From Phycisphaerae bacterium (GTDB lineage Bacteria; Planctomycetota; Phycisphaerae; UBA1845; UTPLA1), in NCBI GenBank assembly GCA_035275405.1, contig DATEMU010000015.1, forward strand, positions 558,001 to 622,000: DNA of 64,000 nt. The letters run 5' to 3'. A model generated the notes under the pieces. That model was not told where the DNA came from and searched no databases. It worked only from the letters and a program-made list of their open reading frames with translations. Below, piece by piece: positions 22,711 through 41,021 of this stretch. A program made the translations under genes and the position numbers. Position 1 is the first letter of the stretch. The number at the start of each line of letters is the position of its first letter.

Positions 22711-23283
22711 GTGCGATCTTATGCAGGTGGGCCGGTCACGCCCCTGGGAGTCCGGCTGGCCCACTGCCTGGTCTTCATCCATCTTGGTACACGGAAAGTT
22801 TTCCTATCGCCGGCCACGTATAACCCGCATGGACCGTGGGTCGAGCAGCAGGCCCGAAACGTGATGATGTGGCTGGATGATCACCAGATCGAGGCGAGGT
22901 TCCTACTTCGTGACCGGGATACGAAGTTCTCTGCTGCGTTTGATCAGCTGTTCAAGAACGCCGGGATTCGCCGCCTGCGGACGCCGCTATTGGCGCCGGA
23001 CGCCAACGCTTTTGCCGAAGCTTGGATCGGAGCGGTCAAGCGGGAGTGCCTGAATCACTTTCTGTGCTTCAGCCTTGGTCATCTCGACCACATCAGCCAG
23101 CACTACGCCCGTTATCACAATGTCCATCGCCCGCACCAAGGCCTGGGCAATCTCACGGTCGTGCAGGCAGCAACCGGACCACCTGAAGTGGGCGCCTTGG
23201 CTAGGGCGTTACCCCTCGACGAGCCGGTTCGCTGTCAGCGATTCCTGGGCGGGCTGCTGAGACACTATTACCGTGCGGCCTGA
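22711..23283 (+). pseudogene. Remnant of an IS integrase/transposase (rve, DDE catalytic core)
   Basis: The frame encodes the C-terminal part of an integrase-core transposase: VFIHLGTRKVFL, FLLRDRDTKFSAAFDQLF with the second catalytic Asp, PDANAFAEAWIGAVKRECLN with the catalytic Glu, and the hallmark HNVHRPHQGL. The N-terminal helix-turn-helix region and the segment with the first catalytic Asp are missing, and the GTG at 22711 lies only 2 bp after the FG-GAP stop codon. It is best read as a truncated, inactive insertion-sequence remnant; I found no terminal inverted repeats. Confidence 0.75.
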
Positions 23284-23558: not shown

Positions 23559-26500
23559 TTACATGCATTCTCCATAGACCCTCACTCTGCACGTACATTC
23601 ACAGAATAGAAGTCCACCAATTTCCCGTTCGACACAACTACCCCGCTTCACGCGATCGTTGTCACGCAATGTGAAGCAAACACACCCCGGCGCACATTTT
23701 TCATCGGCCCGCTTTATCGCATTAGCCCTAGCGTTCGCACAAGTCGTATCCATTCCTTTGCCTGCCCAATTCGCGTGCCAGCAACGGCCCTCCAGCCTTG
23801 TCGTACTATACCCGTTGGCGGAACATTCTCCTTCGCACTCCCACCTGTCTCGGCGAGGCATAGTAGCCACGCTCGCCCTCGCTGTGACGGGGCCAACTGA
23901 AGAATCAAACTCACCTGGAAGCCACCTGACAGATAGGCCAGCACTGGGAGGGCTACTCGGGTTGTTCCCGTCGAACGAGTACGGATTGCCGAGGCTTGAG
24001 CCATTCACCCATGTTCCAGCCTGAGCGCGCTGGATGTACCTGCCCGAGCCGGTAGCCAAGTAGCGGCCGCCGCACCAGTAGAGGCCTGTTTCGCGGTCGA
24101 AGAAGTGGCCGTGGAACAGGAATGGGTTGTCGATGTCGGGCTGCGGCACGAGCAGGGCGAAGGCCAGGTCGGCGGGCTGCTGGTTCCAGGGGCCGAACTG
24201 ATCTGAGCTCCAGAACGACTGGTTGTTTCCGTTGCCGCCGCTTTCCCATTTCCAGGGCGTGATGCCCGGCTGGGCTAGGGTGTTCTCGATGGAGAGCCAG
24301 TAGGTAACACCGGCCTGAGCCGGGAAGGGCTGGCTCAGGGCATATTCATAGATGCGTTCATCCTCTCCGCCGACCACCTGCCCGGTGCCCGCGGCGGCGA
24401 CGTTGTTCCCGGCGGTTTCCTGAAAGATGGGATTGCCGGGAGCGCCAGAATTGTCGTCGAAGATCGTGATGTGGAAGTCGTTGGTATGGGCTTGAATGCC
24501 GGGATCGTACGCTCCCCACCAGCGCAGGCCGGTGATGGTCTCTGGCTGGGCCAGCGTGAAGTCGTCGGCGATGGCCTGCGGACCGGGCTCTTGGTTGCTC
24601 AGGTCCGAACGGTAGGCCTGCTGCTGGTCCGGCGGTTGGGTGTTCGCCGTGGAGAGCTGGGCGATCGGCTTGCCGTAATCTTCGTACTCCCAGCCCGATA
24701 AGACGTTACCGGTCTGGTCGGTCAACTTGGCAACGCTGTTCTGATTGTCGGCGTGGAAGAAGCTCTTCTGTCCACCTTGCTCCATCTGAAGTTCTTCTTC
24801 GAGGAACCCGCGCCACCAAAGACCATTCGTATCGGTGGTCCCAATTTGCGCTGGCGTATCAATTACCTCCGCCAGTGGCAGAGTGGAGAACAGCGCTAAT
24901 AAGTCAGGCAAGTCCGCATAGGGATCCGCCGGTTGGCTGTTCCCATCGTTGCTCGACACAACGGTCGTTACGGCGACGCGCGTCGCATCCCTCGCCTCGA
25001 TCAGCCTGCGGGCACTGTAGGCGTACGATGTCACCGCGGCGGCGGCGCTGGGAGGCACAATCACAGAAAAGCACTGATTTCCAGAGATGGAGTTGAAGTT
25101 GACGCTGCGCGGTTCGCCCAGGTTGTCGCCGCCACCGATGCCGCCCAGCATCTGATTGGAGACGAAGTCGTGTCCCACGGCGTTGACGAAGACGCATAGC
25201 TTGATTTCGCCCGTCGGAGCGCCGATTGCTGCCAGCGGAATGGCCCATTCCACGCCGGTGCTCACGCCCGCCCCGGAATCGGCACCGGTCCCGCCGGTGA
25301 CCCCTGAGGTGTTGCCGTTGTGGATGGTGACTCGGATGCCAAAGGGATTGGAGCCGCTGGCATCCAATGTCCCGTCGGACACCGCCGTGCCGGCGCCGAG
25401 ATAGTATCCCGGCCCGCCGCCGGCGGTGAGCAATTCGGCGTAGTTGGCGAACAGGGCGTAGATACCACCACCGCCATCGCCGCCGGTCATGCCTAGCCAG
25501 AAGTCGGCCGCGAAGCCGGCGTCAAAGGTCAGCCCGTTGCCGCCGCCGTCGTCGCCCATGCGGTTGAGGCCGCCGAAATCCACGCCGGAGTTGTCCCCGC
25601 GGAGCCGGTTCTGCCCGCCGGACCCCGAGTCGATGAAAACTTCCAGTTTGTTGAAGTTGGACTCGAGGTTGCAGCTCAGCATCAGATACAGCACGCCGCC
25701 CTGGACCACGGCTGACACGCCGTCGAGCTCCGAGCCGTTGGCAAAATCGACCTGGCCGGTGTTGCTGTCGCCGAACTGGGTCTGGGTGTTCTGAATTGCG
25801 ACGGGATTGCCATACGCGCTATCCAGCGTCCCATCGATGACCGGAGGCCCGCCGGGCCCGCGCAACGGAGGGGCGTCGAACGCGACCGCCTTCTCAATTC
25901 GGCGGCCCAGACAGTCATAGCGATACTCCGCGCTGACGCTCGCGGCAAGGAAATTCACGAGCTGGTTGCGATAGTCATAGGCGAAGGTCTCGGCGCCGCT
26001 GTTGATGTTGCTCAGGCTGCCGTTCTGGTCATACAGGCGCGACGCGTTGAACGGCGTGGTGGTGTACTGGTTCATCTCGAAGTCGCCCGCTTCGCAGAGG
26101 GTTGGGTCCATGGTGTACGGCCCGGGATTGGGCCCGCCGGAGACGCTGACGCGGTTGCCCACACCGTCCAGGACATAGTCCACCGGCCCCGGCGGCGTCG
26201 GGGTTACGTGATCCCACTGAATCAGGCGATTTGATGCGTCATAGGCGTAGTTGTGGATATCCGTCGGGATGGGCGCGGAGTTGACCTCCATCGAGAGCTT
26301 GTTGTCGTTGGGGTCCCAGGTATACGTCCGCTGGTCAATGACCACAGGGCTACCAGTGGGGTTCCGCGTGTGAGTCGTGGAGAGGATTCGGCGGTCGCCG
26401 TCGTAGGCGTAGGTCGCGCGAACTCTTTCGGCTGGCGACCCGTTGGGATAGTCGCGCCGCTCGACGCGATAGGGCCCGATGTAGGCATAGGTGGCGATGA

Positions 26501-29500
26501 TCGCACCGGGCCCGAGCGGGTCGTTACGGATCAAGAGCGGCCGATCCAGTAGGTCGTAGGTTCGCACAATGACCCGCCCGCCGGGATAGGTCTGGCGGGT
26601 GAGGTTGCCCTCCCCATCGTATACACCGGCCAAGGTCAGGGCCGGACCGTCGGGGTTTAACCGCTGCTGCGTTTCACTCAGGATGTTGCCGAGCGAGTCG
26701 TAGGCGCGGATCACCAGCGAGTCATCGTCTTCCGCACGGCTCATGCGTCCCAGCCCGTCATACGCGTAGATCTCCAAGGTTGTCTGACCGGACACACCGG
26801 TGCCCGGCGAGATGCTGCGAGTGGTCAGGCGGTTGTTCAAATCGTAGTTATTACTGACGACACTTCCATTCGCGTCCGTCGTGGATACGGCGTTGTCGTG
26901 CACGTCAAAGTACGTGAAGTCTGACGTGCAGTCGGCGTGATCGGCGCCCGTGCGCCGGTTCAGCGCGTCGTAAATGTACATCGTCGGATTGCCGTTGTCG
27001 TCGGTTTGGCCGGTCAGGCGCGAGGAGTCGTCCCACGTCTGCGTGCTGACGATGTCGACAGGGTCGGTAAAGAGGAGGTTGCCGTTCATGTCGCGCGCTG
27101 TCTGGCCGGGGCGGTTCAAGCCGTCGTACTCGTAGCGGGTGTGGTTCCCGCGGGCATCGATTGTGCGGACGCGATTGTTCCGCGAGTTATAGACGTATTG
27201 GTGTGTGTTTCCGACGTTGTCAGTCGTGCTGGTGAGCCGATCCAGCAGGTCGTATGCGTAGGTGGTGGTGAACGTCTCGTTCGGGTTGCCCAGATCGGAC
27301 TTGTCGGTCTCGACCATGGAAATCACGTTTGAATCAGCGTCGTACGAGTGGGTCGAAGTATTCAGCTTCGCGTCGGTCGTCGTCAGGAGCCGGTTGGCCG
27401 TGTCGTAGGTGTAGTTCGTGACATGCCCCGGCAAATCGGTGGTCACGCTCGTGGTCTGCGAATTATTCGCGTAAGACGACAGCGTCGTCGACAAACCGTC
27501 CCCGATCGCCGGTTGCGGCGGCAAGGTGTCGAAGTGGGCGATGTCTTGTCGCGTACGGCGGTCCATGGCATCGTATTGATACGACGTTTCGGAAAGCCGA
27601 ACGGATCCCGAATTGCCCGGTACATCGAGCAGTTCCCCGTCGGTTCGTTGTGATGTCATGTTGTCGTTGGCGTCGTAGTGGTAGGTCGTCACATTGCCCA
27701 TCGGATCGGTGGAGCTGACTCCGCGGTTGTAGCCGTCATAGGCGTACATCGTGACGCGTTCGTTTCCGATATCCTCGAGTCCCCGGCGCCGCGCCGCGAC
27801 GTTGCCGTTGCCGTCGTAGTCGGTCTGGTCTGTCGATTGGGCCGGGTCTGTGTTGGACCGAATGACCTTGAAGTGCAGGTCACGCTCGTCATACTCGGTA
27901 TCCACGGTGTTGGTCGGCTGCAAGCCGCTGAAGGACATCGGCCTGCGCTCCCGAATTTGGTTGCGATTGGCGTCGTATTCGTATTCGGTGGTAACCGCCT
28001 CGCCCGGTGGAAAGCTCGGGCAAGATAGGTCGAAGTTGCTCAGGGCCGCCGTGCCCCGCTCCTGGCAGGTCCGGACAATATGATTGAGGATTTCGTACTC
28101 CGTGATCGTGGAGAAGTGCGTGTTGGGCTGGAGGACACCGTTTTCATCGCGGTTTTCGACGTCCGTCCGGACCACGTTGTCGTTAGCGTTGTACCAGGTG
28201 AGCGTCTCGTAGCGGATCACCGGCAGGACCTCACGAGAGAGCGTCCGAACCACCTGGTCCAACGCGTTGTAGGTATAAAGCGAATCGGCGCTGTTTGGGT
28301 GGACTATGCGTATGACGTTGCCCACGGCGTCGTATTCGTACTGGTTCGTCAGATTGAATCCGCCGCTGTCGATCACTTCGGTTTGCAAATAGCCCATTTG
28401 CGGGCCGGCGGCGTAGTACGAGTAGGTGTCGACGCGCCGATGGGCGCTCCCGTTGGCCGGCAGCGTATGGCTGATGACCTGACCGAAGGGCACGTTGTAG
28501 GTCCAATCCTCGACGCCGCCGCCGGGGCGGTGGTCGGTGTGCAGGCGATTGCCGGCCGCGTCGTAGGTGTGCATCGTGACGTTGCCGCGACCGTCGGTGT
28601 GGGTCTTGACGAAGTTGGTCCCGCAGCCGCATCCGCCGAAGCCGGTCTCGTACGTGTAGCTCTCGGTGATACTCGCCTGGTCTCCGCCCAAGGGGCCCGG
28701 GTTGCGCGTGACCGACCGGAGGTTGCCTCGTTCGCGCCGTGCAGCAAGGGGATTGAGATCGAGTTCGTAGGTCTTCGCGGTCGTGTTGAGGTTGGGATAG
28801 GCGATTAGCGTCGTTTGCGAATCGGCGTTGTAGGTCCAGCGAGTTTCGAAGTAGTCGGGGTCCGTCGGCCGGAGCTTGCTGGTCGGTCGGTTGGTGGATT
28901 CCGTCGTCGGCTGGTCGGGATCGGCCCGCCCCGTGTACTCGCGGGCCATGACCAGGCGATTGAGGGCGTCGTAGGAATACTCCCGGACGTTTCCGACGCG
29001 GTCATTCACGACGGTCTTGAGCGCCGCGAAGTTGTTGCCGCCGCACGCGCTCTGGGCGACGTACGTCATGTCAATGACATCCCCCGGCTGGCCCCAGGTC
29101 TGGCGGACCAGGCGATCGAAGTTCAGGTCGGCCGGATCCAGGGTGGAAGCGTACACATTCTGTAAATAAGTCTGACCCTTGGGGTCGGTGATGGTGAGCA
29201 GATTGTGGTTCAGGCGGCTGTCGGCGAAGCCGGAAGAATAGGTGTACGACGTCGATTTGCCGGCCGGGTAGTCGTTACCGTGGGGCGTCCCGGTGACGAC
29301 CGGGCTGCGGACGGTCCGCAGGTCGCCGTTGGCATCGTAGGTATAGATCACCTGTCGGCCGGTGAAGTCGGTGACCGTGCTGATGCGGCTGTTGGCGTCG
29401 TAGGCGACGGTGACGACACGACCAAGGGTATCGGCGATGGAGATCAAGCGTCCGAGCCCATCGTAAATGAAGGCCATCGTGTTGTTATTGCGATCTACGA

Positions 29501-30263
29501 TGGTTGAGATTCGGCCGGGGGCGATGGGATTGGCGAGCGAGCGGAAGTTCCACTTGCCGGTATCGGCGAAGATCAGCGTATAGGTCGTGTCGCCGTTGAG
29601 TTGCAGCTCGCGGAAAAACTCATCGCGCCCCCATTTGCCGTTGGGCTGAAGTAGATACAGGTCTGCGCGAGTGTTGCCATCATGCAGGATGCGATCGGCG
29701 CCGGCCGCTTCAAGGTAGCTGTTGTAGGAATAGTCCCAGCCATGGCCCATCGCGGAAACCGGTCCGTTTCGGGAGCGGTATTTGCGGGCCCAGATAAAGT
29801 CCAGCCCGCGCCCGCGGATGCGCAGATCAGTAGCTGATTGGTACACTTCACCGGAAAAAAAGTAGGCCTGAGCGGCAACCCGCGTATCGGGCATGCCGCT
29901 GCAGGATTCGCCCTCGCTGCAGGGGCTGGCCGGGGGCATGTCCAGCGGACCTGGCTCGTAGGACCCCTGCGCGACGCTGCAGGGGCCGGGCGCGAGCAGC
30001 GTGTTGGCGAAGAGCGGCGTGTCCGCCAGGTCGACCAACGAGTTCAGGTCCATGTCGGCACAGCTGCATCCGGGGCCGATCGTCGGCCCGCTCAGCAAAC
30101 AGCGAACGAAGTCGTCAACGTCAATGCCGTCACGCAGGATGTTGCCTGTCGTGTCAGCGGGGCATGGACAGGGACATTGGCTCCGGGCAGAAGGTTGGAC
30201 ACTCAGCAGGGTGAAACTGGCGAGCGAAAGGGCGATGACCGAGGGGGGTCGGAGAGAGCGCAT
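23559..30263 (-). CDS. Giant secreted RHS/YD-repeat protein with inserted domains and Cys-rich tail, 2234 aa
   Basis: A signal peptide (MRSLRPPSVIALSLASFTLL) is followed by a dockerin-like pair, a pre-RHS domain (about 110-260) and some 1200 residues of YD repeats (YDALNRL, YDANGDL type) that should build a beta-cocoon. At about 1473-1738 a domain beginning VIDGTLDSAYGNPVAI interrupts the repeats and resembles CBM9-like sandwiches. At about 1875-2044 a second beta domain (IADDFTLAQPETITGLRWWG) splits the RHS core just before NPFLFHGHFFDRETGLYWCG. After the core (GRYIQR ... NPYSFDGNNPSS) comes a C-terminal region with 12 Cys in about 95 residues. Good Shine-Dalgarno (AAAGGAG). Export is likely; toxin activity of the tail is only conjecture. 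Confidence 0.9.
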   Translation of the reverse strand: MRSLRPPSVIALSLASFTLLSVQPSARSQCPCPCPADTTGNILRDGIDVDDFVRCLLSGPTIGPGCSCADMDLNSLVDLADTPLFANTLLAPGPCSVAQGSYEPGPLDMPPASPCSEGESCSGMPDTRVAAQAYFFSGEVYQSATDLRIRGRGLDFIWARKYRSRNGPVSAMGHGWDYSYNSYLEAAGADRILHDGNTRADLYLLQPNGKWGRDEFFRELQLNGDTTYTLIFADTGKWNFRSLANPIAPGRISTIVDRNNNTMAFIYDGLGRLISIADTLGRVVTVAYDANSRISTVTDFTGRQVIYTYDANGDLRTVRSPVVTGTPHGNDYPAGKSTSYTYSSGFADSRLNHNLLTITDPKGQTYLQNVYASTLDPADLNFDRLVRQTWGQPGDVIDMTYVAQSACGGNNFAALKTVVNDRVGNVREYSYDALNRLVMAREYTGRADPDQPTTESTNRPTSKLRPTDPDYFETRWTYNADSQTTLIAYPNLNTTAKTYELDLNPLAARRERGNLRSVTRNPGPLGGDQASITESYTYETGFGGCGCGTNFVKTHTDGRGNVTMHTYDAAGNRLHTDHRPGGGVEDWTYNVPFGQVISHTLPANGSAHRRVDTYSYYAAGPQMGYLQTEVIDSGGFNLTNQYEYDAVGNVIRIVHPNSADSLYTYNALDQVVRTLSREVLPVIRYETLTWYNANDNVVRTDVENRDENGVLQPNTHFSTITEYEILNHIVRTCQERGTAALSNFDLSCPSFPPGEAVTTEYEYDANRNQIRERRPMSFSGLQPTNTVDTEYDERDLHFKVIRSNTDPAQSTDQTDYDGNGNVAARRRGLEDIGNERVTMYAYDGYNRGVSSTDPMGNVTTYHYDANDNMTSQRTDGELLDVPGNSGSVRLSETSYQYDAMDRRTRQDIAHFDTLPPQPAIGDGLSTTLSSYANNSQTTSVTTDLPGHVTNYTYDTANRLLTTTDAKLNTSTHSYDADSNVISMVETDKSDLGNPNETFTTTYAYDLLDRLTSTTDNVGNTHQYVYNSRNNRVRTIDARGNHTRYEYDGLNRPGQTARDMNGNLLFTDPVDIVSTQTWDDSSRLTGQTDDNGNPTMYIYDALNRRTGADHADCTSDFTYFDVHDNAVSTTDANGSVVSNNYDLNNRLTTRSISPGTGVSGQTTLEIYAYDGLGRMSRAEDDDSLVIRAYDSLGNILSETQQRLNPDGPALTLAGVYDGEGNLTRQTYPGGRVIVRTYDLLDRPLLIRNDPLGPGAIIATYAYIGPYRVERRDYPNGSPAERVRATYAYDGDRRILSTTHTRNPTGSPVVIDQRTYTWDPNDNKLSMEVNSAPIPTDIHNYAYDASNRLIQWDHVTPTPPGPVDYVLDGVGNRVSVSGGPNPGPYTMDPTLCEAGDFEMNQYTTTPFNASRLYDQNGSLSNINSGAETFAYDYRNQLVNFLAASVSAEYRYDCLGRRIEKAVAFDAPPLRGPGGPPVIDGTLDSAYGNPVAIQNTQTQFGDSNTGQVDFANGSELDGVSAVVQGGVLYLMLSCNLESNFNKLEVFIDSGSGGQNRLRGDNSGVDFGGLNRMGDDGGGNGLTFDAGFAADFWLGMTGGDGGGGIYALFANYAELLTAGGGPGYYLGAGTAVSDGTLDASGSNPFGIRVTIHNGNTSGVTGGTGADSGAGVSTGVEWAIPLAAIGAPTGEIKLCVFVNAVGHDFVSNQMLGGIGGGDNLGEPRSVNFNSISGNQCFSVIVPPSAAAAVTSYAYSARRLIEARDATRVAVTTVVSSNDGNSQPADPYADLPDLLALFSTLPLAEVIDTPAQIGTTDTNGLWWRGFLEEELQMEQGGQKSFFHADNQNSVAKLTDQTGNVLSGWEYEDYGKPIAQLSTANTQPPDQQQAYRSDLSNQEPGPQAIADDFTLAQPETITGLRWWGAYDPGIQAHTNDFHITIFDDNSGAPGNPIFQETAGNNVAAAGTGQVVGGEDERIYEYALSQPFPAQAGVTYWLSIENTLAQPGITPWKWESGGNGNNQSFWSSDQFGPWNQQPADLAFALLVPQPDIDNPFLFHGHFFDRETGLYWCGGRYLATGSGRYIQRAQAGTWVNGSSLGNPYSFDGNNPSSPPSAGLSVRWLPGEFDSSVGPVTARASVATMPRRDRWECEGECSANGYSTTRLEGRCWHANWAGKGMDTTCANARANAIKRADEKCAPGCVCFTLRDNDRVKRGSCVEREIGGLLFCECTCRVRVYGECM

Positions 30264-30622
30264 GATCGGCTCCTTTCGAGAAAGGACGGAGAAGGGAGTA
30301 TCGATCTATCTCATGGCCGCGTGCGCAAAACGCTCGGAAATGCTGCGATCGCGTCCGAACCGGGCCCGGGAAGAACTAATCAGGGTGTAAGCGTACCGAA
30401 TGGTGCAGGAGATGTCAAGGATGGGGGCATGTCGGTGCCGATCCCTCGAATTCGGAGGCGCTAACCCGCGGCATTAATCCTCCGCCGAATGCCAAATCTC
30501 TCTGATCCCCGTGAGTTTTCGGCAATCATTAAGCAGCCGAGACAATTCCACCTCCAATAGCGCTCGCGCCGTTTTTGCAAACGATCGGGTTGGTTGAACT
30601 TCATCTCCGCTAGCTCGACGCC
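30264..30622. other. Intergenic region upstream of the RHS gene
   Basis: About 360 bp. It carries the presumed RHS promoter near its left end. The right part, read on the minus strand, continues the frame of the terminase-like remnant beyond its TAG (peptide VELAEMKFNQPDRLQKRRER), without an intact gene. Confidence 0.4.
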
Positions 30623-30802
30623 CTAGATGGAGGCGGCGACGGCGCAGCCCACGACGCCGTCCAGCCAGTGGTTGTCGCTACCATCCACGCGGAGTTTCCA
30701 CTCCTCGACCGTGCGGCCCCGGCCCTCGGGGGGGACGCGATATTCGCTGGTCTGGCACTCGGCCAACAATCGTGCGTGGGGCGTCCTACCGCACTTAATT
30801 AC
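30623..30802 (-). pseudogene. C-terminal remnant resembling a phage terminase large subunit
   Basis: The minus strand encodes AECQTSEYRVPPEGRGRT, then VEEWKLRVDGSDNHWLDG, then VVGCAVAASI before an in-frame TAG (30623-30625). The combination EYR, GRGR, EEWK and DNHWLD resembles, from memory, the C-terminus of GpA-like terminase large subunits, the ATPase-nuclease that packages phage DNA. Only this tail is present; upstream the frame runs into the regulatory region of the next locus. Without a database search the assignment is tentative. If correct it marks a decayed prophage or phage-derived element at the left edge of the ubiquitin-like locus. Confidence 0.5.
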
Positions 30803-30828
30803 ACGTCGGTCCCGCGTTATTTACTTAT

Positions 30829-30850
30829 GAAGGGATCTTGATATCCCTTC
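30829..30850. repeat. Perfect 8-bp inverted repeat upstream of lipoprotein gene
   Basis: GAAGGGAT and ATCCCTTC separated by 6 nt. No T-tract follows. It may be an operator or RNA hairpin in the leader of the gene at 30920. Confidence 0.4.
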
Positions 30851-30861
30851 ACTGCTAGGGT

Positions 30862-30878
30862 GCGGGCGCGTCGCCCGC
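30862..30878. repeat. GC-rich 7-bp inverted repeat in the same leader
   Basis: GCGGGCG and CGCCCGC separated by 3 nt, 40 bp upstream of the Shine-Dalgarno of the lipoprotein gene. One of several hairpins preceding genes of this locus. Confidence 0.35.
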
Positions 30879-30919
30879 GCCCGATTCCTAACCCAGCACT
30901 CGCGTCGAAGGAGGTCCAC

Positions 30920-31333
30920 ATGCGCCTTGGGGTGTTCTGCGCGCCTTTGGTCTTATCTTGTTTGTTTGGGAGCGGCTGCGATGAGGATACCGATCCCCCC
31001 TCCCAGCAGGCCGTCGAAGCGGCCTGGAAGCGGGCGGATCAGGCCGTGCAGCAATCCATCGCCTCCCAGGCCGACGTGAAGCACATCGCCCGGCTCCGCG
31101 ACATCGATCGGCTGCGGTATCAGGCTGACGTCGCAAGTTTGTCGGTCCAGGTATCGACACTTCGCGGCCTGACGATCGGAGTCTCCCTCGCGTTACTCGC
31201 CGCGCTGATCTGGCTGGCGGTCGAAATCCGCCGCCGGCGCGTCCTGGCGGCGATCATCCGCATGGCACGGCCCACAGACAGCGATCATCCCGCCGAATCG
31301 TCCGACGCTGCAACCCAATCGCTCATCTCCTGA
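30920..31333 (+). CDS. Putative lipoprotein with one transmembrane segment, 137 aa
   Basis: The start is fixed by a strong AAGGAGGT Shine-Dalgarno at 30908-30915. The N-terminus MRLGVFCAPLVLSCLFGSGC resembles a lipoprotein signal with a relaxed lipobox. A helical, Gln/Arg-rich segment follows (residues 30-75), then a clear membrane span (LTIGVSLALLAALIWLAVEI) and an Arg-rich cytoplasmic-type tail. The function is unknown. The layout (signal, coiled segment, membrane span) resembles that of the next gene, suggesting a related pair at the start of the locus. Confidence 0.65.
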   Translation: MRLGVFCAPLVLSCLFGSGCDEDTDPPSQQAVEAAWKRADQAVQQSIASQADVKHIARLRDIDRLRYQADVASLSVQVSTLRGLTIGVSLALLAALIWLAVEIRRRRVLAAIIRMARPTDSDHPAESSDAATQSLIS

Positions 31334-31439
31334 GCGTGGCGGCCGGGGCGTGCTCTCACTCTTTCCCCCATAACGTCACCGCGTTTCTACCTAACCGCGG
31401 CATTTCAACCGTTAGTTCACTTTTCTAAGGAGGTGCCAC

Positions 31440-32135
31440 ACGTATCGATCGAGTTCCCGCCCGATTGCCGCCCTGGCGGTCTTGCTCCTCTTTTCCCTCT
31501 GCATGCTCGGCCCCTGCTTTTCGACCGGCCCTCCGCGCTCCGACGTTACGACCGAACAGCTCGCGCTGCTCAATCAGTCCCTCGACGCCCTACACGAGGA
31601 GGTTGCGGCGGCACGGGCGCCCAGCGGCTGGCCCTTCGTGCTGTTCCTGCTGTCGATCCTGCTGCCGCTCGCCGGCGGGATCTGGCTGCTCGTCCGCGCC
31701 GAGCGTTCGCTCATCGGCCACGATGAGCAGATCCGCTGGCTGGTCCGTGCCGGGATGACGCCCACCGTCATACACGCCTACCTGGAAGAAGCCCAGCGGC
31801 CGCGCCTGCCGCCGCCGGACGACCACACCCCATTGCCTGTTCGCCGGCGACCAATGCCACCACCGCGACACCGCTGGCGACGGTGTCGTCGTCGCGGACG
31901 ACGGCATCGTCACCGTAAGGTTCCGAAAAAGGGCCGCCCCGTTTCCATCACGTCCCTCGTTATCGGATTAACCCTCAACACTTCATGTATACCAAGGAGA
32001 ATTCCTTATGCTCAAACTCAATGCCGGTCTGTCCCGCAAGGTCGGCGAGCCGGACTACGGCTCCCGCGGGGCTTCGGTCAACCTGGAACTGGAGGTGGAA
32101 GGCCACCTCATCCAGGATCCCGACGCCCTCCATGA
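31440..32135 (+). CDS. Putative membrane/lipoprotein with possible non-canonical ACG start; 3' end uncertain
   Basis: An AAGGAGGT Shine-Dalgarno (31427-31434) is followed at the right distance by ACG, and in that frame by YRSSSRPIAALAVLLLFSLC, an excellent signal peptide. No ATG, GTG or TTG fits the Shine-Dalgarno in that frame; the first TTG (31482) lies inside the signal peptide. The body (TTEQLALLNQSLDALHEEVA, then the span WPFVLFLLSILLPLAGGIWL, then AGMTPTVIHAYLEEAQ) looks genuine to about residue 125. Beyond that the frame turns into Arg-rich sequence and overlaps the next gene by 128 bp, so a frameshift near 31830 is likely. Either mutation may have crippled the gene. Confidence 0.5.
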   Translation, partial: TYRSSSRPIAALAVLLLFSLCMLGPCFSTGPPRSDVTTEQLALLNQSLDALHEEVAAARAPSGWPFVLFLLSILLPLAGGIWLLVRAERSLIGHDEQIRWLVRAGMTPTVIHAYLEEAQRPRLPPPDDHTPLPVRRRPMPPPRHRWRRCRRRGRRHRHRKVPKKGRPVSITSLVIGLTLNTSCIPRRIPYAQTQCRSVPQGRRAGLRLPRGFGQPGTGGGRPPHPGSRRPP

Positions 32136-32451
32136 CCGCATCCGCCGGCTCTTCGTCCTGGCCCGCCAGGCCGTGGATGAAGAGCTGCAGGTCGGTCGTA
32201 ACTCTTCACGGAGTCCCCCCAACGGCAACGGCGCGACGCGTGCCACCAACAAGTCACCCACCCGTCCCGCCACGGCCGCGCAGCTCAAGGCCATTCGCTC
32301 GATCGGCGAGCGGCTGCAGCTCGATGTCGAGGGCGAGTGTCAGTCGCGCTTCGGCATGGCCCTCGATCAGCTCGCGCTGCCGGACGCCAGCGCCCTCATC
32401 GATGCCCTCAAGGCGCGATCCACCGGCGCGCCGGCCGGGAGGGGGCCATGA
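32008..32451 (+). CDS. Conserved-looking phage/plasmid-type hypothetical protein, 147 aa
   Basis: An AAGGAG Shine-Dalgarno lies 10 bp upstream of the ATG. The N-terminal domain (MLKLNAGLSRKVGEPDYGSR ... SVNLELEVEG) looks like a small beta-rich fold followed by a helix. After a low-complexity linker, the C-terminal 50 residues (ATAAQLKAIRSIGERL ... DLPDAS-like ALIDALKA ending) resemble the small helical domain at the end of many phage recombination-associated proteins. That resemblance is from memory and untested. The stop overlaps the nuclease start by 4 bp (ATGA), so the two proteins are probably made together. Confidence 0.65.
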   Translation: MLKLNAGLSRKVGEPDYGSRGASVNLELEVEGHLIQDPDALHDRIRRLFVLARQAVDEELQVGRNSSRSPPNGNGATRATNKSPTRPATAAQLKAIRSIGERLQLDVEGECQSRFGMALDQLALPDASALIDALKARSTGAPAGRGP

Positions 32452-33284
32452 GGCTGGCCGTCCTGGACAACCCCGCCAACCTGATCGCCCATGGGATGAC
32501 CGGCCGGAACTACCTGAGCCTGTCGCAGGTGACCACCTACCAGACCTGCCCGCTCCGCTGGTACTTCCAGTACGTGGCTCAGCTTCCCCACGAGCAGGTC
32601 GGCGCCAGCCTGGTCCTCGGCGGGGCGATCCATTCGGCCATCGAGGCCTACTACCAGGCGGAGTTGGCCGGTGAACCGGTGCCGGATCGTGATCGGCTGA
32701 TGACGGTCTTCGAGGAGGCCTGGCGCAAGAACGCCAATGCGCCAATCCACTTCGGGAAGGACGACTCCGCCGGATCGCTGAACGACCTGGCGGGCCGGAT
32801 GGTCAGCGCCTTCCTGGAAAGCAGCAGCTGCGATCCCGGCGGGACCGTCCTGGGCATCGAGGAGGAGATCCGCACGGAGTACCTTCCGGGCGTGCCCGAC
32901 CTGCTGGCACGGGTCGATCTGATCATCCTTACCGACGACGCCCTGGTCATCCGCGACTTCAAGACCGCCCGCAGCCGCTGGACGGCCGCCAAGCTGGCCG
33001 AGGCGGCCGTGCAGCTCGTGCTGTACGGCGATCTGGCGCTGCCCATGGCTCAGGCGTTTGGCGATCGTCCCGTGCGGCTGGAGTTCGTGGTCCTGACCAA
33101 GACGAAGTCGCCGCAGGTGGAGGTCCTGCCGGTCGAGGCCGATGCGGCGTCGCTGGTGCGGCTCAGGCGGATCATCGAGCGGGTGTGGGCGGCCATGCAG
33201 GCCGGCCATGTCTATCCCAATCCCTCGGCGCTGAACTGCTCATCCTGCCCGTTCCAGCGGGCCTGTCGCGAGTGGTGCGACTGA
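32448..33284 (+). CDS. PD-(D/E)XK nuclease, RecB/Cas4-like, with Fe-S type Cys cluster
   Basis: The 278-residue protein begins its fold with LSLSQVTTYQTCPLRWYFQY, typical of the AddB/RecB-C/Cas4 nuclease group, then GGAIHSAIEAYYQ. The catalytic region contains DLIILTDDALVIRDFKT, with the Asp and the x-K of DFKT, and a later Gln-containing helix (AAVQLVLYGDLAL). The C-terminus NCSSCPFQRACREWC supplies three or more Cys that, with the Cys of TCPLRW, match the 4Fe-4S cluster of this group. Likely a DNA end-processing or single-strand nuclease. The ATGA overlap with the preceding gene and a GGGAGG Shine-Dalgarno fix the start. Confidence 0.87.
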   Translation: MRLAVLDNPANLIAHGMTGRNYLSLSQVTTYQTCPLRWYFQYVAQLPHEQVGASLVLGGAIHSAIEAYYQAELAGEPVPDRDRLMTVFEEAWRKNANAPIHFGKDDSAGSLNDLAGRMVSAFLESSSCDPGGTVLGIEEEIRTEYLPGVPDLLARVDLIILTDDALVIRDFKTARSRWTAAKLAEAAVQLVLYGDLALPMAQAFGDRPVRLEFVVLTKTKSPQVEVLPVEADAASLVRLRRIIERVWAAMQAGHVYPNPSALNCSSCPFQRACREWCD

Positions 33285-33680: not shown

Positions 33681-33908
33681 ATGAGAGTGCTCTACTTAAA
33701 CAACGCGGGCGGCGGGTTCGCCGATTACATCGACGTCGAACCCGGCACCACGGTGGAGAAGTTCTTCAGCCAGAAGATGCCCAGCAACTCCGAGGCCGAC
33801 TATCTGATCCGCGTCAACCGCCAGCCGGTGGCCCGCAACCAGATGCTCCAGGAGAACGACCGCGTGAGCATAACTCCGACGAAGATCGAGGGCGCGCGGA
33901 TCGCCTGA
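33681..33908 (+). CDS. ThiS/MoaD-type ubiquitin-like protein (beta-grasp), 75 aa
   Basis: The start is the ATG at 33681 with an AAAGGA Shine-Dalgarno, not the Met 19 codons upstream. The 75-residue sequence follows the ThiS/MoaD pattern: strand RVLYLNN, strand [15 protein letters not shown], helix, [20 protein letters not shown], then [15 protein letters not shown]. The loop N-R-Q-P-V followed by a Leu and an Asn-Asp turn is characteristic. It lacks the usual free C-terminal Gly-Gly: Gly71 is followed by ARIA. The JAB peptidase of the locus could remove that tail to expose Gly71, as ubiquitin precursors are trimmed; this is inference. The E1-like enzyme at 49766 is the probable activator. A sulfur-carrier role is the alternative. 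Confidence 0.85.
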
Positions 33909-39143: not shown

Positions 39144-39186
39144 GGGCATCCGCGACGCTGTCGCCGCGGGTGCCCCTTTTCTTTTT
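39144..39186 (+). terminator. Terminator-like hairpin directly before the E2-RING ribosome site
   Basis: Stem GGGCATCCGCG/CGCGGGTGCCC (one G-T pair), 10-nt loop, then TTTTCTTTTT. The Shine-Dalgarno GGAGG starts at 39187 and the ATG at 39200, so termination here would block expression of the downstream gene. This suggests attenuation, or the relic of an upstream gene end. It resembles the hairpin at 33934. Confidence 0.7.
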
Positions 39187-39199
39187 GGAGGACCTGAAC

Positions 39200-40336
39200 A
39201 TGAACCACGATACCCGCCGGCAGGCCCGCTGGGCCGGCCACCTGCATGCCGGCCTGCAGCGCCTCGGCCGGGGAAAGTTGACCGTGCTCTCAGACGAAAT
39301 TGGAAGGTTAGGCGCGCAGCTGGAACGCGTGCGTCAACTTCGGCTGCGGCTCATGACCTGCCTGGAGCGCGGCTGGCAGGCCGCCGCCCGCGATGTCCGT
39401 CGCGAACTTGACTACACCTTGGGCGATATCGACCGGGCGACGACGCAATGCGATCAGCTACTCCGGCGGAACGAATCGACCGCGCCCACGCCGCGCTTCG
39501 TCTTCGACGAACTCCGCCAGCTCCACGATGAGTTCGACGAGATCAAGTTCGACGCGGAGCACGCGATGCTCAGTGTCACGACCGAGCCGATCACCCTGGA
39601 GGGCATCCGCCTGGGCCGGTTCGAGATTCGTTTGGAGCTGGGCGGCCATTCCGATGCCGATCCCGCCTCCTTCCTGCGGATCGTCGCCCTGGAGCCCAAC
39701 CCGGCCTCCTGCGACTCGACCGTGACCCACCCGCATGTCCGCGATGAACGGATCTGCCTGGGCGAGGCGGCCGCGCCCATCCAGCAGGCCTTGGCCGACG
39801 GACGGGTCTGCGACCTGTTCATCCTGGTCCGCTCGGTCCTGCAGACCTACAACGCCGACTCGCCGTTCATCTCCCTGGCCAAGTGGGATGGCCGGCCCTG
39901 CCACGACTGTGGCTACTCGATGGATGACGAGGAGAGCTACTGGTGCGAGGGCTGCGAGCATGACTTTTGCGACCAGTGCGTGAGCTGCTGCCGCTCCTGC
40001 GACCAGTCCTATTGCAAGAACTGCCTGCGAGACTGCGCGATCTGTGGAAACGCCCACTGCGAGGCCTGCCTCCGCCGCTGCCGCGCCTGCGAGGAGTCGG
40101 TCTGCGCGGAGTGCCTGAAAGAGGATGTGTGTACGACCTGCCAAGAAGACAAGGAGCACGAGGATGCAAGTAATGACCAAGGATCCGATAGCAAGGCCGC
40201 CCAAGGCGGTGGAAACGAAGACGACCCTTCCGACGGAAACGGAAACGACCAAAGCGCCGGCCGAGTCGACAACGGCGAAGCTCGAAGGGTTGAAGGAGAC
40301 GATCAAGTCGCCGTCGCCGAGGCGGCCACGGCGTGA
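39200..40336 (+). CDS. E2-like (UBC-fold) domain fused to RING-like zinc domain, 378 aa
   Basis: Residues 1-125 are helical. Residues about 125-230 match the ubiquitin-conjugating E2 core: FEIRLEL strand, LRIVALEPNPAS, then THPHVRDERICLGE with H177-P178-H179 and Cys186 nine residues on, like the HPN ... C active site, followed by LFILVRSVLQTYNADSPF, equivalent to the E2 segment ending in SP-L. Residues 234-314 hold 21 Cys including ten CxxC pairs (C234/237 through C311/314), a treble-clef/RING-like array. The last 60 residues are acidic and disordered and overlap the JAB gene in another frame. Predicted role: E2 and E3 functions in one chain, receiving the 75-aa ubiquitin-like protein on Cys186. 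The family call is from motif reading, not a search. Confidence 0.8.
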   Translation: MNHDTRRQARWAGHLHAGLQRLGRGKLTVLSDEIGRLGAQLERVRQLRLRLMTCLERGWQAAARDVRRELDYTLGDIDRATTQCDQLLRRNESTAPTPRFVFDELRQLHDEFDEIKFDAEHAMLSVTTEPITLEGIRLGRFEIRLELGGHSDADPASFLRIVALEPNPASCDSTVTHPHVRDERICLGEAAAPIQQALADGRVCDLFILVRSVLQTYNADSPFISLAKWDGRPCHDCGYSMDDEESYWCEGCEHDFCDQCVSCCRSCDQSYCKNCLRDCAICGNAHCEACLRRCRACEESVCAECLKEDVCTTCQEDKEHEDASNDQGSDSKAAQGGGNEDDPSDGNGNDQSAGRVDNGEARRVEGDDQVAVAEAATA

Positions 40337-41021
40337 GATTCAGCTGCCCCCGCCGCCCGTCCTGCGCTTCAGCCCCACCGCCTGGGCGAAGCTCCAGTTC
40401 TTCTGCCATGCCGGCGAGACCGAGATCGGCGGCTTCGGGATCACGCCATCCTGCGACCTGCTCTACGTCGACGAGTTCGTGACCGTCCGGCAGCAGACCA
40501 GCGTCGTCAGCGTGGCCTTCGACGATGACGCCGTCGCCGACTTCTTCGAGGACCAGGTGATGGCGGGCCGTAAGCCCGAGCAGTTCATGAGATGCTGGTG
40601 CCATACCCATCCCGGCGATTCCCCGACGCCGAGCTGTACCGACGAGGAGACCTTTGCCCGCGTGTTCGGCCCGTCCGACTGGGCGATCATGTTCATCTTG
40701 GCCAAGGGCGGGCAGACCTACGCCCGGCTGCGATTCAACACGGGGCCCGGTGGGCACCTGCTGATCCCCGTGACCGTCGACTACTCGCAACCCTTCGCGG
40801 GCAGTGACCACGCGGCCTGGGAGGATGAGTACCACGCCCACATCTGGCCGCTCCTTTCGGCGAAGGGTTCGCCTCGCGCCGACATGGGCCTGGATTTCGG
40901 CGACCCGTGGCTGGAGGAGATGGAGAGGCACGAGAAGGTGCGGGCCGCGGCGATGGCGGAGGACGTGGAGCACTTTGGAACCTGGCCCACCAACGAGGAG
41001 TTTTGGCATGAAGGACGATAA
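40164..41021 (+). CDS. JAB/JAMM (Mov34/MPN) metalloisopeptidase, 285 aa
   Basis: The start at 40164 is fixed by AAGGAG at 40151-40156 and lies 173 bp inside the E2-RING gene in another frame. Residues 1-65 are a Thr/Pro/Lys-rich linker. The JAMM zinc motif is complete: Glu87 in GETEIGGFG and HTHPGDSPTPSCTD with His147, His149, Ser157 and Asp160 (H-x-H-x7-S-x2-D). Such enzymes cut isopeptide bonds or trim ubiquitin-like precursors. Here the substrate is probably the 75-aa protein at 33681. The C-terminal 80 residues are charged and helical. Its stop overlaps the next ATG. Confidence 0.92.
   Translation: MQVMTKDPIARPPKAVETKTTLPTETETTKAPAESTTAKLEGLKETIKSPSPRRPRREIQLPPPPVLRFSPTAWAKLQFFCHAGETEIGGFGITPSCDLLYVDEFVTVRQQTSVVSVAFDDDAVADFFEDQVMAGRKPEQFMRCWCHTHPGDSPTPSCTDEETFARVFGPSDWAIMFILAKGGQTYARLRFNTGPGGHLLIPVTVDYSQPFAGSDHAAWEDEYHAHIWPLLSAKGSPRADMGLDFGDPWLEEMERHEKVRAAAMAEDVEHFGTWPTNEEFWHEGR

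What the first reader, a model, noticed from the sequence alone, without database searches (positions are those of the whole stretch)
30560..30802. Phage-terminase-like tail at the left border of the locus
The minus strand encodes EYRVPPEGRGRT, EEWK and DNHWLDG, resembling a GpA-type terminase C-terminus, then a TAG, after which the frame stays open for about 30 codons. If confirmed, the ubiquitin-like locus may be derived from a prophage or other integrated element.
Basis: partly seen in the sequence, partly recalled or inferred. Interest (0 to 1): 0.5.

Follow-up and report, generated by a model that had tools for sequence, protein, structure and literature searches.

The report
Broken phage terminase gene end
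A short stretch of bacterial DNA is the leftover last part of a virus DNA-packaging gene; the same genome holds whole copies of that gene and many other such leftovers, which suggests that new DNA was repeatedly spliced in at the end of this gene.

Summary
Window 30582-30766 (minus) is a 185-bp pseudogene: the 3' end of a large-terminase gene, with an in-frame TAG at 30623-30625. It is 93-95% identical in protein over 43 codons to the tails of three terminases in the same genome; one of these, a 775-codon ORF (C14B), matches Pfam GpA_nuclease at 91 bits.

It is not part of a prophage here. No integrase, primase or methylase of that family lies in the window or on the flanks examined, and the genome has no detectable portal or capsid.

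It is not alone. A genome-wide search found 10 short terminase fragments; 9 come from the last ~215 bp of the 2,328-bp gene. Seven lie downstream of surviving terminases, in the same orientation, among host-like genes. On C13 they match another terminase allele, not their neighbour. One phage contig (L199) shows the same pattern, with the portal still in place. Best explanation: cargo was repeatedly inserted at the terminase 3' end, displacing the old end. The window copy lost its terminase.

The ubiquitin-like locus beside it is a separate conserved module: 0 of 25 such loci carry terminase and 0 of 180 terminase loci carry the module.

The parts
30582..30766 (-). Decayed 3' end of a large-terminase gene (about 62 codons)
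   Evidence: 84-89% DNA identity over about 178 bp to three terminase copies of the same genome; 93-95% protein identity over 43 residues; PHROG phrog_15 E=2.2e-5
30623..30625 (-). In-frame TAG that breaks the remnant; CAG or CAC in the copies aligned with it
   Evidence: homology continues past it
30794..30919 (+). Sequence upstream of p1 that resembles the upstream sequence of p1 in L280 and L282
   Evidence: By eye from the sequences printed; BLAST in that call supports only stretches within and after p1
30920..33284 (+). Neighbouring module, not part of the remnant: p1 (30920-31333), p2 (from 31482), p3 (32008-32451), PD-(D/E)XK nuclease (32451-33284)
   Evidence: Conserved in relatives; Pfam PDDEXK_1 E=8.3e-36
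33681..33908 (+). Ubiquitin-like ORF of the same module (75 aa)
39170..41021 (+). E2/RING-like ORF (39170-40336) and JAB-like ORF (40125-41021) of the same module
   Evidence: Prok-JAB 22.8 bits, below its cut-off of 25; E2/RING-like ORF without Pfam match, named by eye
23559..30263 (-). RHS-repeat ORF (2234 aa), next gene downstream of the remnant
   Evidence: Pfam RHS_repeat E=4.6e-49

Best explanation
Shown: the feature is the decayed 3' end of a large-terminase gene from a temperate-phage family found in Planctomycetota genomes and in viral contigs. The same genome keeps several phage-derived islands of that family, and 3'-end-only relics of the gene are scattered through it.

Inferred: the relics are displaced gene ends. 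Cargo DNA carrying its own version of the terminase 3' end recombined into the end of a resident terminase gene. The gene was restored with the incoming end, and the old end was pushed to the far side of the cargo. Repetition gives terminase - cargo - old end - cargo - older end. In the window one such displaced end survives between the Ubl/PD-(D/E)XK module and an RHS gene; the terminase once upstream of it has been lost. The remnant itself now does nothing.

The identity as a terminase 3' relic is near certain (about 0.97). The displacement mechanism is a moderate inference; the confidence given is for that mechanism.
For: Of 10 short terminase fragments in the genome, 9 come from the last ~215 bp of the 2,328-bp gene, 1 is internal, and none comes from the 520 bp upstream; p=4.5e-9 for uniform positions. 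Seven of the nine tails lie within about 9 kb downstream of a surviving terminase and in its orientation; the other two are the window and C5. The two C13 tails fit the C14B allele (51/57 and 39/44) better than the adjacent C13 allele (11/12 and 32/43), so they are not local duplications. The 3.8k tail on C14 ends, by eye, like the C12 gene end and not like the terminase beside it. An independent phage contig, L199, shows terminase - small opposite-strand ORF - second decayed tail - portal. Intact relatives carry a portal after the terminase in 111 of 114 loci; here it is absent after all four copies and from the genome.
Against: Only one further case among 160 terminase loci and none in the 20-kb neighbourhoods of relatives tested (16 loci): the pattern is mostly one genome's. 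Left edges of the tails vary by about 130 bp, so no fixed site is seen. In the window there is no terminase upstream of the relic, so for this copy alone simple deletion of a prophage explains as much. The fragments cluster, so the binomial p overstates the case. No empty site was seen.
Confidence: 0.42

Rival explanations
1. Ordinary prophage decay: prophages of this family inserted in the genome and deletions removed everything except short pieces, one of them here. For the window copy alone this is as simple as any account.
For: No other gene of the family near the window relic; C5 has a disrupted integrase by a tRNA-Ala and a terminase tail, as a shrunken prophage would; decayed prophages are common (general knowledge).
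Against: Random deletion does not leave 9 of 10 fragments from the last tenth of one gene. Seven tails lie downstream of intact terminases, where decay of that prophage cannot make them, and the C13 pair carries another allele.
Confidence: 0.3
2. Packaging scars: the terminase cuts DNA near its own 3' end to start headful packaging rightwards, as in lateral transduction; transferred molecules that begin at the cut were later joined into the chromosome, leaving a tail followed by cargo.
For: Tails keep the end of the gene and what follows it; left edges spread over about 130 bp, which recalls the imprecise cuts at pac sites (recalled, not looked up); the islands keep terminase without virion genes.
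Against: No pac site was located; in L199 the tail lies inside a phage genome before the portal, which displacement explains more simply.
Confidence: 0.1
3. Site-specific insertion: the terminase 3' end holds a recombination site used by a recombinase, so that cargo units enter as cassettes.
For: All nine tails share the stretch around query 2707-2721; three tails on C5, C13 and C14 share the motif CGCACGTCTGATANNNNTTCTTATGTTGC after the gene end and then diverge.
Against: Left edges are not fixed; between tails on C14 I saw 1-3 ORFs and no recombinase; the islands here use tRNA ends as att sites.
Confidence: 0.1
4. One reading: the ubiquitin-like locus is a prophage or prophage cargo and the tail is the edge of that prophage.
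For: The tail lies about 27 bp from sequence resembling the upstream region of the module's first gene in relatives (by eye); in L280 a tyrosine recombinase stands beside the module.
Against: 0 of 25 loci with the module's genes have terminase, portal, capsid or methylase of the family, and 0 of 180 terminase loci have the module's genes; the module is conserved without phage genes.
Confidence: 0.06

Closest known systems
Large terminase of the GpA_nuclease (PF20454) / PHROG phrog_15 family
   Same: Sequence of the C-terminus, about 93-95% identical to own-genome terminases, one of which passes the Pfam cut-off
   Different: Only the last ~62 codons, with an in-frame stop; no ATPase part
Phage morons (cargo genes inserted between phage genes; term recalled)
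   Same: Small opposite-strand ORF between terminase and portal in L199
   Different: Here a second copy of the terminase 3' end marks the insertion, and in this genome the virion genes are gone
Phage satellites (P4, PICI, tycheposons; recalled, tycheposons only as a search term)
   Same: Integrase, primase and tRNA att sites, no portal or capsid found, host-like cargo
   Different: They keep a large terminase; helper dependence and packaging are untested; the islands may simply be decayed prophages
HEG islands (PMC10448857; passages seen)
   Same: Surroundings of the terminase gene as a place of repeated DNA exchange
   Different: I identified no homing nuclease gene beside the tails; the paper's passages describe nuclease genes near or within essential phage genes, not displaced gene ends

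Membership tests
GpA-type large terminase | C-terminal nuclease-domain sequence of the family | tested here: met
   phrog_15 E=2.2e-5; 95% to own-genome full copies; below the Pfam cut-off alone
GpA-type large terminase | Complete open gene with ATPase and nuclease parts | tested here: not met
   185 bp only, with TAG. Even the full-length C14B protein lists only GpA_nuclease in Pfam, and PF05876 gave no match in the genome
Prophage (at the window locus) | Integrase, replication and virion genes beside the terminase | tested here: not met
   No relatives of integrase, primase or methylase in the window and two flanks; portal and capsid absent genome-wide
Prophage (at the window locus) | att sites or tRNA at the borders | tested here: inconclusive
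   No tRNA in the window; the 24-bp tRNA-Gly end is not in the window; other att sites were not searched for
Phage satellite (for the C7/C14 islands) | Integrase and replication genes without virion genes | tested here: met
   C14B: integrase, primase- and methylase-family ORFs, terminase; no portal, no capsid (a search without positive control); assembly 96% complete
Phage satellite (for the C7/C14 islands) | Packaging in the particles of a helper phage | not testable with these tools
   Needs particles and a host culture
Integron-like cassette array | Dedicated recombinase and a fixed recombination site between cassettes | tested here: inconclusive
   Tails share a stretch but their left edges vary by about 130 bp; no recombinase was seen between them

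The most novel reading that the evidence does not exclude
The terminase 3' end is a recurrent entry point for cargo in phage-derived islands that kept integrase, primase, methylase and terminase, shed the virion genes, and stand in tandem at a tRNA-Gly with near-phage length (41.4 kb for one; about 42 kb for another if two contigs join as proposed). The islands would be cargo-carrying satellites packaged in a helper's heads, and each displaced terminase end marks one past cargo acquisition, the junction beside the ubiquitin-like module among them.
Probability: 0.17. Interest if true: 0.7.

Novelty: new variant of a known kind. Interest (0 to 1): 0.4.

Why it matters
The remnant itself is ordinary phage debris. 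What is unusual is the genome-wide series of 3'-end-only relics of one packaging gene, plus one phage contig with the same pattern. If the displacement reading holds, these relics record how phage-derived islands collect host genes, and a terminase 3' end becomes a marker for finding cargo borders in other genomes. It also removes a false clue: the ubiquitin-like locus should not be called a prophage locus because of this tail.

Tried and rejected
Rejected: that the tail is part of a local prophage; that the ubiquitin-like module belongs to this phage family; that the RHS genes beside the window tail and beside the C14 51.5k tail are orthologous cargo (about 29% identity in repeats only), although the set of FG-GAP gene, tail and RHS gene at first looked shared; local tandem duplication as the source of the C13 tails; direct repeats between the terminase end and the integrase side of C14B (none).

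Weak and left out of the counts: a possible tenth tail at C14:42.9k (62 bp, 77%). One search did not test it, because the reference overlapped the query.

Led nowhere: Rfam on the window (0 matches); phage records (3 weak hits, best E=0.01); literature searches for terminase 3'-end duplications, Planctomycetota prophage terminases, satellites and the ubiquitin-like locus (nothing describing this pattern in the listings; only PMC10448857 was opened, as passages). I do not claim that it is absent from print beyond those searches. Scripts failed because files were not yet laid; the work was done.

Full report
1. What is there. The window is G000:C15:558001-622000 of a 5.29-Mb, 19-contig, 96% complete assembly. 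On the minus strand at 30582-30766 lies a stretch whose reading frame is ECQTSEYRVPPEGRGRTVEEWKLRVDGSDNHWLDGVVGCAVAASI*GVELAEMKF. Alone it scores 12.7 bits against Pfam GpA_nuclease, 15 with the part after the TAG, below the 22.5 cut-off, but E=2.2e-5 against the PHROG large-terminase family. The decisive match is inside the genome. Three terminase copies, C14:42594 (775-codon ORF, here C14B), C12:629583 and C14:1232 (C14A), are 93-95% identical over 43 residues and 84-89% in DNA over about 178 bp. A fourth copy on C13 is more distant. C14B scores 91 bits against GpA_nuclease. The window copy differs from C12 at 13 synonymous and 4 non-synonymous codons in 57, the TAG included. It therefore diverged as a working gene and broke later. 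The best match among the tails of 160 terminases from viral and genome contigs is 41 of 52 residues, so the relic belongs to this genome's own lineage of copies.

2. Surroundings. To the left (downstream of the relic) is a 2,234-aa RHS-repeat ORF, then a fragment with an rve transposase domain and an FG-GAP repeat protein. To the right, in the opposite orientation, are p1, p2, p3 and a PD-(D/E)XK nuclease, the ubiquitin-like ORF at 33681-33908, and, after a kinase, an ECF sigma factor and another ORF, the E2/RING-like and JAB-like ORFs. By eye, a block resembling the sequence upstream of p1 in L280 and L282 begins at 30794, about 27 bp from the relic. No integrase, primase or methylase of the phage family is in the window or in C15:540-558k and 622-642k, and there is no tRNA in the window.

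3. The phage family. One scan of viral contigs found 487 relatives of the terminase and one of genome contigs 237, the latter mostly from Planctomycetota records; the best 80 of each were kept. In related genomes the order is primase, ParB/methylase, terminase, portal, head protease/capsid, tail. Of the 160 loci, 114 have at least 3 kb downstream of the terminase; 111 of these have a portal there, 95 within 2 kb. This genome is different. None of its four terminase copies is followed by an ORF of the portal or capsid clusters. The portal family gave no match genome-wide, although the same search rang in three control genomes. A relative's capsid protein gave none either, but that search had no positive control. 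Among the genes that follow the terminases instead are an Na/H antiporter-type protein, a patatin, a metallo-beta-lactamase-type protein, a CsgG-like protein and a subtilase.

4. Islands. A tRNA-Gly(CCC) at C7:396.2k and three more copies of its 42-bp 3' end, at C7:446.4k, C14:29.26k and C14:70.70k, bound stretches of about 50 and 41.4 kb. A third of about 42 kb follows if C7 continues into C14. The C7 end overlaps both the C14 start and the C12 end by 134 identical bases inside the terminase gene, so that join is one of two possibilities. An integrase follows each of C7:396k, C7:446k and C14:29.3k. Of 10 proteins from the C14 islands scanned with PHROGs, one is the integrase, one a DNA methyltransferase and eight have no match; none is a virion protein. 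Pfam adds LCAT, CHAT, methylase and response-regulator families.

5. The series of 3' ends. With C14:40001-43100 as query the genome gives 17 matches. Seven are the query itself, full or half copies, or parts of these. Ten are short fragments: nine from the last ~215 bp of the 2,328-bp gene (window, C14 1.6k, 3.8k, 46.8k, 48.7k, 51.5k, C13 272.1k, 272.7k, C5 107.2k) and one internal (C14:7172-7258, codons 541-569). Under uniform sampling this has p=4.5e-9, with the caution that the fragments cluster and may not be independent. Seven of the nine lie within about 9 kb downstream of a surviving terminase, in its orientation. The C13 pair fits C14B's allele (51/57 and 39/44) better than the adjacent C13 allele (11/12 and 32/43), so they did not arise by local duplication. 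Three tails share the motif CGCACGTCTGATANNNNTTCTTATGTTGC after the gene end (three places in the genome at up to 3 mismatches, none in the reversed control). C5 also has an integrase split over two ORFs next to a tRNA-Ala, in the same orientation as its tail.

6. The same pattern elsewhere. Among the 160 contig loci a profile of the tail finds one further case: L199, a viral contig, where terminase, a small opposite-strand ORF, a decayed second tail and then the portal follow each other. None of the 16 relatives' neighbourhoods tested has a terminase 3'-end fragment. A 76-residue tail search over 61 genomes found a series of short tails only in this genome; a few single short or partial matches occur elsewhere, such as G011:C70 and G029:C12. 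So the pattern is real but rare.

7. Mechanism. The simplest account of 3'-end specificity, serial order, constant orientation, foreign allele and the L199 case is insertion of cargo at the end of the terminase gene with displacement of the old end. Steps shown: the relics, their position in the gene, order, orientation and allele. Steps inferred: that insertion rather than deletion made them; that homologous recombination at the gene end was the route; that the window relic once had a terminase upstream. Rivals are given separately; plain decay remains quite possible for the window copy taken alone.

8. The ubiquitin-like locus. In relatives the order int-p1-p2-p3-PD-x-DnaN-z-y-GHKL is seen in L280, and z-y-GHKL-Ubl-E2/RING-JAB in L308; L316 again has GHKL before Ubl. 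The Ubl and E2/RING-like genes lie together in 11 of 11 fetched loci, with JAB in 10; the eleventh contig (L309) ends just after the E2/RING-like gene. p3 lies directly next to PD in 11 of 14 loci. The PD gene and the E2/RING-like gene occur together in 6 of 150 genomes when 16 and 11 have them, this genome included (p=1.9e-4). So these genes form one conserved module, which in the window is shortened and interrupted. None of 25 such loci has the phage genes and none of 180 terminase loci has the module. In L280 a tyrosine recombinase stands beside it, so it may be mobile in its own right.

9. Verdict. Observation confirmed. Interpretation: terminase yes, prophage origin of the ubiquitin-like locus no. 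Taken alone the relic is ordinary; the series to which it belongs is a modest novelty worth testing.

Noticed in passing
L066, L069, L070, L074, L075, L077, L078, L081: tRNA-Met (CAT) genes found in 8 of the 22 loci scanned; by position they lie between terminase and portal, e.g. L070 11400-11472 and L078 10364-10434. In the 114 longer contig loci only L132 and L133 showed a tRNA-Met there.
   Followed up: partly
G000:C7:396.2-446.4k and C14:29.3-70.7k (L094-L096, L030, L031, L084): Phage-derived islands in tandem at a tRNA-Gly(CCC), bounded by a 42-bp repeat; integrase at each left end; host-like cargo.
   Followed up: partly
G000 contig ends C7:459146-459279, C14:1-134, end of C12: One left terminase half overlaps two different right halves by the same 134 bases: an assembly fork inside the terminase gene, perhaps two islands sharing a left part.
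   Followed up: partly
window 30920-33284, 33681-33908, 39170-41021; L280, L281, L308, L311, L316: Conserved module p1-p2-p3-PD-(D/E)XK-x-DnaN-z-y-GHKL and Ubl-E2/RING-JAB; a ThiF-like ORF follows in L311 by eye. In the window x to GHKL are missing and a kinase, an ECF sigma factor and another ORF separate Ubl from E2/RING.
   Followed up: partly
L246, L252, L268: The three of 114 terminase loci with no portal match downstream; possible further virion-less elements.
   Followed up: no
G000 C5:107177-107205, C13:272073-272101, C14:51552-51580: Three terminase tails share a further 29-bp motif after the gene end and then diverge.
   Followed up: partly
G000 C14:7172-7258: The only internal terminase fragment among the short ones (codons 541-569), 86% identical to C14B.
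   Followed up: no
window 22711-23283: Transposase fragment with an rve integrase core, related to a fuller copy on C13 (L034 7351-8439).
   Followed up: no
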